Below, piece by piece: positions 53,092 to 56,487 of a stretch of 64,000 bases of DNA. Location of the stretch: positions 868,001 to 932,000 of the forward strand of contig NZ_JAUYGV010000006.1 in the NCBI RefSeq assembly GCF_030690345.1, written 5' to 3'. The notes beneath the pieces are model-generated. The model worked only from the letters and a program-made list of their open reading frames with translations, searched no databases and had not been told where the DNA came from. This stretch comes from Rheinheimera sp. Its GTDB lineage: Bacteria > Pseudomonadota > Gammaproteobacteria > Enterobacterales > Alteromonadaceae. How positions within the stretch are numbered: position 1 is the first letter of the stretch; each line of letters begins with the position of its first letter. A program made the translations under genes and the position numbers.

Positions 53092-54081
53092 ATGACCATG
53101 CTTATCGACCATAAGTTTTCCATCGCCCCTATGCTGGATTGGACAGATAAGCATTGTCGCTATTTTCACCGCCTGCTGAGTCAGCATGCCGTGCTGTACA
53201 CCGAAATGGTCACCACCGGCGCTATTATTCATGGCAGCGGTGATTATTTAGCTTTTAATGCAGAAGAGCATCCGCTGGTATTGCAACTGGGCGGCTCTAA
53301 CCCGGCTGATATGGCGCATTGTGCCAAACTGGCAGAGCAGCGTGGTTATGATGCGGTGAATATTAATGTTGGCTGCCCGTCTGACAGGGTGCAAAACGGT
53401 ATGTTTGGTGCCTGCCTGATGGCGCAGCCGCAGTTAGTAGCCGATTGCATCAAAGCCATGCAGGATGTGGTCAGCATACCGGTGACGGTGAAAACCCGAA
53501 TTGGCATTGACGACTCTGATGATTATCAGTTTTTGCAGGACTTTGTCGCGACCGTAGCCGATGCCGGCTGCCAACAGCTGATTATTCATGCCCGTAAAGC
53601 CTGGCTTAAAGGCTTAAGCCCGAAAGAAAACCGTGAAGTGCCGCCACTGAATTATGCCCGGGTGTACCAGTTAAAGCGTGAATTTCAGCAGCTTAATATC
53701 AGCATTAACGGCGGCATTAAAACGCTGCAGCAGGCGCGTGAGCAACTGCAGTATCTGGACGGTGTGATGGTAGGGCGCGAAGCCTACAGCAACCCTATGC
53801 TGCTCAGCGATGTAGATGCGCTGATTTACGCTAAAACCGGTAACGGTCTTACGCCACAGCAGGTGGTGTTGGCTATGCTGCCTTATATCGAGCGGCAAAT
53901 GCAGCAGGGCGCGCGCTTTTGGCATATTGCGCGGCATATGTTGGGGCTGTTTCAGGGCATGCCGGGGGCCAGACAATGGCGGCGGTTATTGAGTGAACGT
54001 GGCCATTTCGCCGACGCTAAGCCGGAATTATTACTGCAGGCACTGGCTAAAGTTACTGCGTTAGCGGATTTAACCAGCTGA
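53092..54081 (+). CDS. dusA: tRNA-dihydrouridine synthase A
   Basis: Reduces uridine to dihydrouridine in the D-loop of tRNA with FMN and [44 protein letters not shown], catalytic Cys95 in [19 protein letters not shown] and [20 protein letters not shown] are diagnostic of DusA rather than DusB/C. The 329-residue length fits. It starts three bases after speD and ends before a terminator. Confidence 0.96.
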
Positions 54082-54114
54082 GTAGTTAATTTCACTATTT
54101 TTTAGTTTTCTGTT

Positions 54115-54149
54115 AAAGGCGGGCAATGATCAAATTGGCCGCCTTTTTT
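54115..54149 (+). terminator. Terminator after dusA
   Basis: AAAGGCGG (54115-54122) pairs with CCGCCTTT (54139-54146), the inner CAA/TTG extending the stem past a G-G mismatch, followed by TTT. It isolates the small-protein operon that follows. Confidence 0.8.
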
Positions 54150-54191
54150 ATTTGTTGTTATAAATCATTATCTTGAATCTTGTTACTAACC

Positions 54192-54207
54192 TGGCACAGC
54201 ACTTGAA
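54192..54207 (+). promoter_or_regulatory. Sigma-54-like promoter of the PspC small-protein operon
   Basis: TGGCAC-AGCAC-TTGAA matches the -24/-12 consensus TGGCAC-N5-TTGCW with exact spacing; the one mismatch is at the -12 C. It lies about 45 bases before ATG 54253, a normal distance. The E. coli psp operon, which also encodes PspC, uses sigma-54 and PspF, which strengthens the call. No PspF gene is in the window. Confidence 0.5.
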
Positions 54208-54252
54208 ACACTGAGGGTGTAGTACAGACTAACCACTTTCAAGGACAGGATA

Positions 54253-54522
54253 ATGAACACACTGACTGCTTTAACCTTTACCGCTTGTGTCACCGCCGGC
54301 CTGTATAGCACTGTCGCCGGCGCAGATGAATTGACAGAACAAGTACGTGCTGCCGTGCCGTCGTCGCAGACAGAATTGCGTGTTACTACCGCACAACAAG
54401 CACAGTTGGCAATGCATAAAACCGTGATTGAACTGCTGGCGCGCCACAGTGCACAGCAAGATGCTCAGGCACTGCAGTTGGCTTATCAGGCGCCGCATAG
54501 CATCCGCGGCGAGGCGGAGTGA
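54253..54522 (+). CDS. Small secreted protein of the PspC operon
   Basis: An 89-residue protein that I do not recognise. A signal peptide (start MNTLTALTFTACVTAG, cleaved near VAGADE) is followed by about 64 mostly helical, Gln/Ala-rich residues (TTAQQAQLAMHKTVIELLARHSAQQDAQ; the middle could coil). It would be periplasmic. AAGGACAGGA lies just upstream of the ATG. It is first in a run of four short genes ending in PspC, behind the sigma-54-like promoter. Confidence 0.7.
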   Translation: MNTLTALTFTACVTAGLYSTVAGADELTEQVRAAVPSSQTELRVTTAQQAQLAMHKTVIELLARHSAQQDAQALQLAYQAPHSIRGEAE

Positions 54523-54525
54523 ACC

Positions 54526-54657
54526 ATGCTGTTATCACCCGGTTGGTTGTTAATTATTTACCTGAGTCCGGTGCTGAGCATTATCCCTGTGATGTTGCTA
54601 TGGCTCAGCATGGCACCGGTTGCCGCCTTGTGGCAAAAAGTACGTTTGCCGGTGTAA
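54526..54657 (+). CDS. 43-residue membrane protein
   Basis: A tiny gene with ATG three bases after the previous stop codon and GGAG about eight bases upstream. The product starts MLLSPGWLLIIYLSPVLSII and continues PVMLLWLSMAPVAALWQKVR; it is almost wholly hydrophobic with a basic end, so one or two membrane segments with Arg/Lys inside. No family recognised. Support comes from spacing, the ribosome-binding site and operon fit. Confidence 0.6.
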   Translation: MLLSPGWLLIIYLSPVLSIIPVMLLWLSMAPVAALWQKVRLPV

Positions 54658-54668
54658 CAGGAGGCAAT

Positions 54669-54791
54669 ATGGATTGGGTAAGTATTGAATTGTTAAGCTT
54701 TGCGGTATTCGCCATGCCGGCACTACTGGCACGACGGGCAAACATGTACAGATCAGACAGCGAAGGAGTAATAAATAATGGCAGCATATGA
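54669..54791 (+). CDS. 40-residue membrane-associated protein
   Basis: A tiny gene behind a strong AGGAGG five bases before ATG 54669. The product begins MDWVSIELLSFAVFAMPALL, a single hydrophobic helix, then a basic RRANMYRSD tail; its last codons overlap pspC by 14 bases. The layout (short helix, basic tail, next to PspC) recalls PspB, but I see no PspB signature. Function unknown. Confidence 0.6.
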   Translation: MDWVSIELLSFAVFAMPALLARRANMYRSDSEGVINNGSI

Positions 54792-54975
54792 TACAGATCG
54801 TTGGTATTGCGCCCGTGCTTATCGCAAAGTGGCGGGCGTTTGCGCCGGGTTTGCCGGTTATTATCAACAGCCGCGTTGGTTAATACGTTTGTTGGCAGTT
54901 ATTCTGTTATTGATGTTTCCGCTGGCAACTATTGTGGCTTATCTGGTGGCGGCGGCAGTGCTGCCTGATCGTTAG
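54778..54975 (+). CDS. pspC: PspC-domain membrane protein
   Basis: A 65-residue protein consisting of a PspC domain: RAYRKVAGVCAGFAGYYQQPRWLIRLL leads to a membrane helix (LLAVILLLMFPLATIVAYLVAAAVLP). PspC proteins sense envelope stress and hold PspA at the membrane in enterobacteria. This one lacks the longer C-terminal part of E. coli PspC (119 residues), and no pspA is near. AAGGAG is about ten bases before the ATG. Confidence 0.85.
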   Translation: MAAYDTDRWYCARAYRKVAGVCAGFAGYYQQPRWLIRLLAVILLLMFPLATIVAYLVAAAVLPDR

Positions 54976-55068: not shown

Positions 55069-55500
55069 ATGCGATTGTTAAGTACCGCGTTGTTGCTGTT
55101 GAGTATGAATGTATTGGCCGACAGCGGCGCAGCTGTCAGTGTAACGAATGAACAAATCCGCCAGCCAATGCCCGGACGCACTGTCACCGCAGGCTATCTG
55201 ACCCTGCATAATCAATCAGCACAGGCTATTATTCTTAAGGGAGCCAGCAGTCCGGCCTTTGCCCGCACTGAGCTGCATCAGCACAGCCACAAAGATGGCA
55301 TGATGCGGATGGAACAAGTAGAGCAAATCACAGTAGATGCCGGGGAGAGCGTTGAGTTTGCCCCGGGCGGTTTGCATTTGATGTTTTTTGAACCAACGGC
55401 AGCGCTGGAACTGGATCAAGCCGTGCCCTTATCTTTGCAGTTTGCTGACGGGCAACAACTAACGCTGACATTGCCGGTAGTGGCAATGCCGAAGCGCTGA
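55069..55500 (+). CDS. PCuAC-type periplasmic copper chaperone
   Basis: A 143-residue exported protein. After a signal peptide (cleaved near VLADS) it has the PCuAC fold (TAGYLTLHNQSAQAIILKGASSP) and copper ligands in HQHSHKDGMMRMEQ and PGGLHLMFF, fitting the H-M-x10-M-x21-H-x-M pattern. Such proteins deliver Cu(I) to cytochrome oxidase or buffer copper. ACAAGGAG precedes the ATG. It is followed by the DUF2333 gene after nine bases, so they are likely one operon. No oxidase genes are in the window. Confidence 0.88.
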   Translation: MRLLSTALLLLSMNVLADSGAAVSVTNEQIRQPMPGRTVTAGYLTLHNQSAQAIILKGASSPAFARTELHQHSHKDGMMRMEQVEQITVDAGESVEFAPGGLHLMFFEPTAALELDQAVPLSLQFADGQQLTLTLPVVAMPKR

Positions 55501-55509
55501 GGAAAGATA

Positions 55510-56487
55510 ATGTTAAATGCGAAAGTTGTCAGCGCCGCAGTAGCGGCGCTACTGGTTATTATGTACCTGACCGGCTGGTGGGTTAGCCGTGAACCGGCGC
55601 TGCTGGTGGACGAGATTCAACAAAGCCATCAACAACTGGGTGAGCGGGCGATAGTGGGCTACAGTACCACCACCGCGCTTATCCGTGTCAGTGAAACCCT
55701 GCTGGATAAAAGCGGTGGTTATCTTGCCAATGACATTATGCCGCCCTTTGTGCTGCTGGATAATATGCCGGCGTGGGAGCTGGGTGTGCTGGAAATGTCG
55801 CGTGATTTAGCCTTGGCGCTGCGCAAGGATTTAAGCCGCTCGCAATCGCAGTCAACTGAAAATCAGTTTCTTAAAGTCGCTCAGCCAATGTTTAACATTG
55901 ATCATCGCAGTTGGGCAATTCCCGCGGCGGAATCAGAGTATCGCAAAGCGATAGCACAGTTATATCAGTATCGGGCAGAGTTAATGGACCCGGCTAAACC
56001 GGACAGCCAGTTTTATGCCCGTGCCGATAACCTGCGTGATTGGTTAAAAGCCGTAGAGAAACGGCTTGGCAGTTATTCCCAGCGTTTAAGTGCCAGTGTG
56101 GGCCAGGACAGGTTAAATACTGATTTAGCCGGTGACTCCGGTGCACGGCAATCAACCTCTTCTCCGGGCCAAAAGATGGTTAAAACCAGTTGGTGGAAAA
56201 TAGACGATGAATTTTATGAAGCCCGCGGTGCAGCCTGGGCATTACTGCACTTTCTTAAAGCTGTAGAAACAGATTTTGCCGAAGTACTGCAACGTAAAAA
56301 TGCTATGGTCAGTTTGCGACAAATTATTCGTGAGCTGGAAGCCACGCAACAGGCGGTGTGGAGCCCGATGATACTCAACGGCAGCGGTTTTGGGTTAATG
56401 GCTAACCATAGTTTGGTGATGGCCAATTACATTTCCAGAGCAAATGCGGCGCTTATAGATTTATCAGAACTACTAACACAAGGGTAA
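55510..56487 (+). CDS. DUF2333 membrane-anchored protein
   Basis: A 325-residue protein with one N-terminal membrane helix (about 5-24, VVSAAVAALLVIMYLTGWWV) and a large, mostly helical periplasmic domain. RVSETLLDKSGGYLANDIMPPFVLLDNMPAWELGVL and IDHRSWAIPAAESEYRKAI are hallmark stretches of DUF2333. No function is known. It lies between a copper chaperone and a TIGR04219 barrel, all three closely spaced. Confidence 0.85.
   Translation: MLNAKVVSAAVAALLVIMYLTGWWVSREPALLVDEIQQSHQQLGERAIVGYSTTTALIRVSETLLDKSGGYLANDIMPPFVLLDNMPAWELGVLEMSRDLALALRKDLSRSQSQSTENQFLKVAQPMFNIDHRSWAIPAAESEYRKAIAQLYQYRAELMDPAKPDSQFYARADNLRDWLKAVEKRLGSYSQRLSASVGQDRLNTDLAGDSGARQSTSSPGQKMVKTSWWKIDDEFYEARGAAWALLHFLKAVETDFAEVLQRKNAMVSLRQIIRELEATQQAVWSPMILNGSGFGLMANHSLVMANYISRANAALIDLSELLTQG

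What the first reader, a model, noticed from the sequence alone, without database searches (positions are those of the whole stretch)
54192..54975. Sigma-54-like promoter driving four tiny envelope genes ending in PspC
TGGCAC-N5-TTGAA has exact -24/-12 spacing upstream of an 89-residue secreted protein, two membrane proteins of only 43 and 40 residues (each with its own ribosome-binding site) and a 65-residue PspC domain. Standard psp operons have pspA and pspB; neither is recognised here. Inference: a reduced, pspA-less envelope stress module with new small proteins, the best candidate in this window for an undescribed system.
Basis: partly seen in the sequence, partly recalled or inferred. 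Interest (0 to 1): 0.7.

Follow-up and report, generated by a model that had tools for sequence, protein, structure and literature searches.

The report
Second phage-shock operon beside dusA
Right after the gene dusA, in the spot where E. coli keeps its stress gene pspG, this Rheinheimera-genus bacterium carries four tiny envelope-protein genes behind a promoter that matches those of the membrane-stress (phage-shock) genes, so they are likely a little-noticed second arm of that response.

Summary
TGGCAC-N5-TTGAA (54192) lies downstream of a PspF-type enhancer site (TAGT-N7-ACTA, 54083) and an IHF-like site; a matrix from other genomes' pspA promoters ranks this place first in the window. All four frames are conserved, in order, in 17 of 31 genomes of the genus, under purifying selection. 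The 43-codon frame persists in 13 of 13 readable genomes of the genus that lack this PspC gene.

The interpretation needs correcting. The genome has a complete pspF-pspABC locus elsewhere, so this is not a stand-alone pspA-less Psp system but a second, dusA-linked unit of the predicted PspF regulon. In other genera of the order, related operons carry their own PspA paralogue before the short PspC. In E. coli the slot after dusA holds pspG behind the same order of promoter parts. Aeromonas joins the two: pspA2-pspC2-pspG in one operon.

Most likely PspF switches the unit on during inner-membrane stress, and its small proteins act as accessory membrane effectors, in PspG's role. Regulation and function are predicted from sequence and untested. 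A new variant of a known kind.

The parts
54083..54097 (+). PspF-type upstream activating site TAGTTAATTTCACTA, 109 nt upstream of the -24 element
   Evidence: Best match in the whole window, both strands, to a matrix from other genomes' pspA promoters (20.7 bits; next independent 14.5). 13 of 17 genomes with the operon match TRGT-N7-RCYA exactly and 4 of 17 with one mismatch. Spacing is 110-111 nt in most of the 25 pspA promoters with a strict pair.
54115..54149 (+). Terminator-like hairpin with T run after dusA, lying between the enhancer site and the promoter
   Evidence: Read from the sequence and the upstream alignment; not scored by a terminator program.
54163..54175 (+). IHF-like site AATCATTATCTTG, starting 29 nt before TGGC
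   Evidence: Loose match WATCA-N5/6-TTR in 15 of 17 genomes, in all 15 at 29 nt; shuffles give 0.285 of 17 on average. The IHF consensus is recalled.
54192..54207 (+). Sigma-54-type -24/-12 promoter TGGCACAGCACTTGAA
   Evidence: TGGCA[CT]N5TTG[AT]A in 17 of 17 genomes with the operon.
54253..54522 (+). ORF1, 89 aa, signal-peptide-like N-terminus, predicted helical, exported protein of unknown family
   Evidence: AlphaFold2 gives helix 24-85 at low confidence (pLDDT 60.3, pTM 0.29).
54526..54657 (+). ORF2, 43 aa, one hydrophobic helix with an invariant proline (P15)
   Evidence: 24 aligned relatives from several genera, chosen by me, share the proline; ORF2 in 17 of 17 plus 13 of 13 readable genomes of the genus.
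54669..54791 (+). ORF3, 40 aa, one hydrophobic helix, pattern M-x-W-x3-E-x3-F-x2-F; overlaps the start of pspC
   Evidence: 12 aligned relatives; weak, suggestive profile match to the N-terminus of PspB.
54778..54975 (+). Short pspC, 65 aa: PspC domain only, without the C-terminal periplasmic region of full-length PspC
   Evidence: PF04024 50.1 bits; TIGR02978 43.9 bits against a cut-off of 104, matching only positions 5-59 of 121.
53092..54081 (+). dusA, upstream neighbour that fixes the slot (also upstream of pspG in E. coli)
   Evidence: NF008774, 536 bits.
55069..55500 (+). Downstream neighbour: PCu(A)C copper chaperone, conserved flank, not shown to belong to the operon
   Evidence: PF04314, 116.4 bits.

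Best explanation
This is a dusA-linked operon of four small envelope-protein genes, in the slot where E. coli carries pspG and behind the same order of promoter parts, and it is likely the second operon of the PspF/sigma-54 (phage-shock) regulon. Shown here by sequence: enhancer site, IHF-like site and -24/-12 element at conserved spacing; conservation of all four frames; a complete pspF-pspABC locus elsewhere in the genome; related operons with their own PspA in other genera. Inferred: when the inner membrane is damaged, PspA made by the main operon lets go of PspF, and PspF then fires both promoters through sigma-54. The products would be an exported helical protein, two single-helix membrane peptides and a PspC cut down to its membrane core. 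They would insert at the inner membrane and act as accessory effectors alongside PspA, PspB and full-length PspC, the role PspG has in E. coli. The short PspC lacks the part that contacts PspA in E. coli PspC, so it would act in the membrane rather than signal to PspA.
For: Enhancer plus promoter composite scores 28.6 bits at 54192. The second best, 17.5, is the same palindromic site read on the other strand; the next independent place has 4.6; 0 of 3000 shuffles reach 28.6 (matrix built without this genome). The own pspA promoter has the same parts at 110 nt, also with GA at -12. Outside the genus, 26 of 46 short-PspC loci have a strict enhancer-promoter pair, against a shuffle mean of 0.06 and 1 on the reverse strand. 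The spacings cluster near 100, 110, 121 and 131 nt, in DNA-turn steps: R = 0.83 at 10.5 bp, 0 of 5000 uniform draws as high. Five of 5 named Paraglaciecola and Lacimicrobium loci read have pspA2, short pspC, PCuAC and DUF2333 with a strict pair upstream. E. coli dusA is followed by pspG with TAGTCAAATTCACCA, AATCAATAGATTA and TGGCATGATTCTTGTAA in the same order. pspG follows dusA in 15 of 20 fetched PspG loci. In 15 of 15 PspG-bearing genomes of family f25, PspG lies directly behind the short PspC (coordinates); their genus g49 is Aeromonas by DNA identity of the main psp locus of two of them to named Aeromonas records, and G233, read in full, is pspA2-pspC2-pspG. The own genome has no PspG. 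PspC residues 1-68 bind PspB but not PspA in E. coli, and PspC contacts PspG (PMC3068692, passages).
Against: No expression, binding or phenotype data exist here. 20 of 46 loci outside the genus lack a strict site pair, and only 1 of the 15 fetched dusA-linked pspG loci has one besides E. coli, so control may be lost or changed in places. The promoter matrix alone scores 7.9 bits here, and at least five other places in the window score higher. None of the window's four proteins is detectably homologous to PspG: own genome negative, ORF2 against PspG probability 3.8. The E. coli flank downstream of pspG differs (pspH and qorA, not PCuAC), and several related operons are not next to dusA. ORF1 shows no significant amphipathic periodicity and no confident fold, so its role is open. 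The effector role itself is by analogy only.
Confidence: 0.72

Rival explanations
1. A stand-alone, pspA-less envelope stress system: its own sensor and effectors, working apart from the main Psp response.
For: No pspA or full pspB in the operon; PspA-less versions also make up 16 of the 46 loci fetched from other genera.
Against: Complete pspF-pspABC in the same genome and the same enhancer motif at both promoters, so the two units would share one activator. 30 of 47 fetched loci include a PspA paralogue.
Confidence: 0.1
2. Regulatory decoy: the short PspC and tiny helices compete with full-length PspC for PspB and so damp or reset the Psp response, a negative-feedback arm rather than an effector arm.
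For: E. coli PspC 1-68 binds PspB strongly but not PspA (PMC3068692, passages), the shape the 65-aa protein keeps; ORF3 looks weakly like the PspB N-terminus (2 of 150 shuffled controls as high).
Against: 13 of 13 readable genomes of the genus without this PspC keep ORF2, 11 of 13 with a strict promoter pair, so the operon's use does not depend on PspC competition.
Confidence: 0.2
3. Relic: a decaying copy of an old second psp operon, kept by chance in the dusA slot, with no present function.
For: Gene content shrinks step by step across the genus: four genes, two genes, ORF2 alone.
Against: All-pairs pN/pS under 0.6 for all four frames; of the unsaturated pairs printed, all are at most 0.37 except one ORF3 pair at 0.67 on very few changes. 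The promoter is kept in 17 of 17 genomes.
Confidence: 0.05

Closest known systems
pspG transcription unit of E. coli (dusA-pspG, PspF/sigma-54 controlled)
   Same: Same chromosomal slot after dusA; same order of enhancer site, IHF-like site and -24/-12 promoter; small inner-membrane product(s); unlinked to the main psp operon.
   Different: No PspG protein; four other small genes instead; enhancer-promoter distance 109 against 67 nt; different downstream flank.
pspABC(DE) operon with divergent pspF
   Same: PspC domain at the end of the operon; enhancer and promoter parts match the own pspA promoter.
   Different: No pspA or proper pspB, no adjacent pspF; PspC is reduced to its domain core. 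The operon-2 PspA paralogues of other genera fall outside the group of 22 correctly labelled canonical PspAs (support 95/95, midpoint-rooted tree).
pspA2-pspC2 operons of Paraglaciecola, Lacimicrobium, Aeromonas and unnamed relatives (found here, not from the literature)
   Same: Short PspC behind a PspF-type promoter in many; often an ORF1-like exported protein first and a tiny proline-helix protein; PCuAC or DUF2333 downstream in 39 of 47 fetched loci.
   Different: Most carry a second PspA of about 220 aa, and some a 107-121 aa membrane protein, both missing in the window. ORF3 was not noticed outside the window's genus, but was not searched for there.

Membership tests
PspF regulon (PspF/sigma-54-controlled unit) | -24/-12 sigma-54 promoter | tested here: met
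   TGGCAC-N5-TTGAA, 17 of 17 genomes with the operon; -12 GA instead of GC, as in the own pspA promoter.
PspF regulon (PspF/sigma-54-controlled unit) | PspF-type enhancer site upstream at pspA-like spacing | tested here: met
   54083-54097, rank 1 in the window by a matrix trained on other genomes. Met as a sequence match only.
PspF regulon (PspF/sigma-54-controlled unit) | pspF present in the genome | tested here: met
   TIGR02974, 554.8 bits against a cut-off of 443.55, divergent from pspA.
PspF regulon (PspF/sigma-54-controlled unit) | Transcription depends on PspF and RpoN | not testable with these tools
   Needs mutants.
Canonical pspABC operon | pspA in the operon | tested here: not met
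   The only PspA match of the genome is on contig C2.
Canonical pspABC operon | pspB in the operon | tested here: inconclusive
   No Pfam match for ORF2 or ORF3; ORF3 against PspB probability 58, 2 of 150 shuffled controls at least as high; ORF2 3.5.
Canonical pspABC operon | Full-length PspC with periplasmic C-terminal region | tested here: not met
   65 aa; TIGR02978 43.9 bits against 104. The own main-operon PspC frame is 148 aa.
pspG unit | PspG protein (PF09583) | tested here: not met
   0 matches in the own genome; of 14 control genomes only E. coli rings.
pspG unit | Position directly after dusA with a PspF-type promoter | tested here: met
   for the window; for E. coli.

The most novel reading that the evidence does not exclude
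The PspF regulon of this whole bacterial order has two ancient operons, not one operon plus an orphan gene. The second sits at dusA and once encoded its own PspA and PspC; E. coli's unexplained pspG is its last survivor, and Rheinheimera kept a different remnant, in which a 43-residue proline-helix peptide is the part never lost and is a new Psp effector.
Probability: 0.5. Interest if true: 0.75.

Novelty: new variant of a known kind. Interest (0 to 1): 0.6.

Why it matters
PspG is described in print as an orphan PspF target whose role is not understood (PMC9239133, passages). The Aeromonas loci, where pspA2, pspC2 and pspG share one operon, and the shared dusA slot give PspG an evolutionary context and make its role testable. 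They also nominate tiny membrane proteins without a family as Psp effectors, and supply a predicted PspF site rule (TRGT-N7-RCYA in DNA-turn steps from the promoter) for finding the regulon in other genera.

Tried and rejected
Amphipathic membrane-binding helix for ORF1: the hydrophobic moment at 100 degrees is not significant for the window protein (p = 0.757) or for any of the 12 sequences tried (lowest p 0.059); dropped. ORF2 as a PspB stub: hhalign probability 3.5 and 1.6 in the rerun; not supported. ORF3 as a PspB stub: suggestive only. The 107-121 aa membrane protein of related operons as a divergent PspG: probability 2.8 and no PspG match for five divergent examples, against 77.8 bits for the Aeromonas protein; not supported. 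AlphaFold2 of ORF1 gave low confidence, so no fold search was run. A first genome-wide promoter pattern was badly written: it fits neither the window site nor the own pspA site, so its 18 hits say nothing. Pfam's GlutR_N hit to ORF1 (E 0.00041, 20.6 bits, cut-off 27) was taken as chance. The automatic gene finder missed several small genes, including ORF1 of the window, and mislabelled two (L114, L147); its table was not used for counts. In the PspA tree and in the 30 promoters, one row labelled canonical (L066) is really the operon-2 PspA of G050, identical to L121. The six named Aeromonas records turned out to be main-operon loci, not the second operon, so the name Aeromonas for genus g49 was tested by DNA identity instead. 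Literature searches judged by titles and starts of abstracts only, with passages read in PMC9239133, PMC11237479, PMC3068692 and PMC2763126; no listed paper was seen to report this operon.

Full report
What is there. At 54083-54975 the window holds, in order, a PspF-type enhancer site, a terminator-like hairpin after the upstream gene dusA, an IHF-like site, a sigma-54-type promoter and four small genes of 89, 43, 40 and 65 codons. The last is a PspC domain and little else (50.1 bits; 43.9 bits against 104 for the full-length PspC model). No family is found above cut-off for the other three.

Conservation. In one search (own genome and 59 others), 16 of the 30 other genomes of the genus have a close copy of the short PspC. 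Reading these with the window gives 17 genomes with all four frames in the same order between dusA and a PCuAC gene. Substitutions are mainly silent: all-pairs pN/pS 0.55, 0.39, 0.58, 0.20 for ORF1 to ORF4; of the unsaturated pairs printed, all are at most 0.37 except one ORF3 pair at 0.67 on very few changes. The other 14 genomes of the genus lack this PspC. In 13 of 14 the region after dusA can be read (the contig of the fourteenth, G005, ends there). 13 of 13 keep an ORF2-like tiny protein with an L[LM]P[VL] motif, 10 of 13 keep ORF1 (read; the pattern finds 9 and misses L234), and 0 of 13 show the PspC motif within 1300 nt. 11 of 13 have a strict enhancer-promoter pair. ORF2 is therefore the most persistent gene of the operon in the genus.

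Promoter. The matrix test used 24 pspA promoters of other genomes with the own genome left out, many of them from the same genus (16 distinct enhancer sites). It puts the best enhancer match of the whole window at 54083, with 20.7 bits against 14.5 for the next independent site. The composite with the promoter is 28.6; the second, 17.5, is the same palindrome read on the other strand, and the next independent place has 4.6; 0 of 3000 shuffles reach 28.6. The promoter matrix alone does not single the site out: it scores 7.9 bits, and at least five other places score higher. In the 17 genomes the promoter TGGCA[CT]N5TTG[AT]A is present in 17, the enhancer site in 13 exactly and 4 with one mismatch, and the IHF-like site in 15, in all 15 starting 29 nt before TGGC. 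The own pspA promoter has the same parts at 110 nt spacing and the same GA at -12. Of 30 fetched PspA upstream regions, 25 have a strict pair (one of the 30, L066, is an operon-2 locus). Calling the motif the PspF site rests on its presence in these promoters and in the E. coli pspF-pspA region (TAGTGTAATTCGCTA), and on recall of that region's role; binding was not tested.

The same operon elsewhere. A profile of short PspCs was run over 295 genomes of the order. 47 loci (own included) were fetched from its hits and earlier ones, a selection rather than all hits. Of the 47, 30 have a PspA paralogue in front of the short PspC, 33 have dusA upstream within the fetched stretch (29 within 900 nt of the operon's PspA or PspC frame), and 39 have PCuAC or DUF2333 downstream. 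The fullest form, seen in several genera of the window's family, is exported protein, pspA2, tiny proline-helix protein, short pspC, 107-121 aa membrane protein; in L143 it follows dusA, in L103, L105, L106 and L111 no dusA was found within the stretch upstream. PspA-less forms are 17 of 47 including the window, and several still have an exported ORF1-like protein first. Five of 5 named Paraglaciecola and Lacimicrobium loci read have pspA2, short pspC, PCuAC and DUF2333, each with a strict pair upstream; dusA is within the stretch in 3 of 5, about 1 to 1.6 kb away. Outside the genus 26 of 46 of the fetched loci have a strict enhancer-promoter pair, against 0.06 expected from shuffles and 1 on the reverse strand. 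Their 30 spacings fall near 100, 110, 121 and 131 nt, steps of one DNA turn (R = 0.83 at 10.5 bp; 0 of 5000). Loci of one genus are not independent, so that figure overstates the evidence. In a midpoint-rooted tree of 53 PspAs the correctly labelled canonical ones (22 rows) form one group (support 95/95) and the operon-2 PspAs lie outside it. The second operon is thus not a set of recent copies of the first.

Link to pspG. PspG was searched in 295 genomes of the order: 57 have it, in families f10, f12, f18, f21 and f25. In 15 of 15 PspG-bearing f25 genomes it lies directly behind the short PspC (coordinates). Two of them, G175 and G233, have a main psp locus up to 93% identical to named Aeromonas records over more than a kilobase. 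G233, read in full, is pspA2-pspC2-pspG, and the downstream protein of G175 scores 77.8 bits to the PspG family. In 20 fetched PspG loci, 15 have dusA directly upstream (families f10, f18, f21), four (f12) do not, and one is the f25 operon. In E. coli K-12 dusA is followed by pspG, and between them lie TAGTCAAATTCACCA, AATCAATAGATTA and TGGCATGATTCTTGTAA, the same order of parts as in the window, at 67 nt, four DNA turns less than 109. Against this: of the 15 fetched dusA-linked pspG loci only 1 has a strict pair; of the four f12 loci 3 do, and the f25 one does. Several of the others show near-matches by eye and the f21 ones no clear TGGCA element, so PspF control of pspG in those genera is not shown here. 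Genomes of f10, f12, f18 and f21 listed have one PspC match each, so no second, short PspC was found there. The own genome has no PspG.

How it likely works. PMC3068692 (passages read) reports that E. coli PspC 1-68 binds PspB but not PspA, that a mutated leucine zipper (77-98) loses PspA contact, and that PspC contacts the effector PspG. The window's PspC ends where that region would begin. The best reading is therefore a PspF-driven accessory effector operon whose products act within the membrane, with PspA, PspB and full PspC supplied by the main operon. A decoy or damping role is the main rival. All steps after the promoter match are inferred.

Known and new. [quoted passage not shown] PMC11237479 (passages) treats PspA-free PspC contexts; words beginning 'Alteromonad' do not occur in its main text or in that of PMC9239133. 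The searches, judged from their listings, gave no report of a dusA-linked second psp operon; the library leaves out most subscription papers.

Noticed in passing
L229, L233, L236 after dusA: In three genomes of the genus the operon is reduced to ORF2 alone, lengthened to about 58 residues with a basic tail, before PCuAC or DUF2333.
   Followed up: partly
L154 (R. mesophila) 1904 and 2626; L157 (R. soli) 2709 and 3421: Two species named Rheinheimera have two enhancer-promoter pairs in a row between dusA and a short PspC that lies more than 1 kb away: possibly a doubled operon.
   Followed up: no
L147 (G078) 2292-2848: The ORF1-like exported protein is present twice in tandem (two 73-aa copies).
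   Followed up: no
L110, L117, L122 (family f16): These genomes keep a lone short PspC after dusA before DUF2333, while two of them (G050, G075) have a second short-PspC locus with an exported protein and a PspA elsewhere: the operon seems split between two places.
   Followed up: no
55510-56487: A DUF2333 gene (PF10095, 479.7 bits) follows PCuAC here and in many related loci; why this pair stays beside the slot is unknown.
   Followed up: no
L232 (G005): The contig ends within what looks like the start of the enhancer site right after dusA, so the operon's state in this genome is unknown.
   Followed up: no
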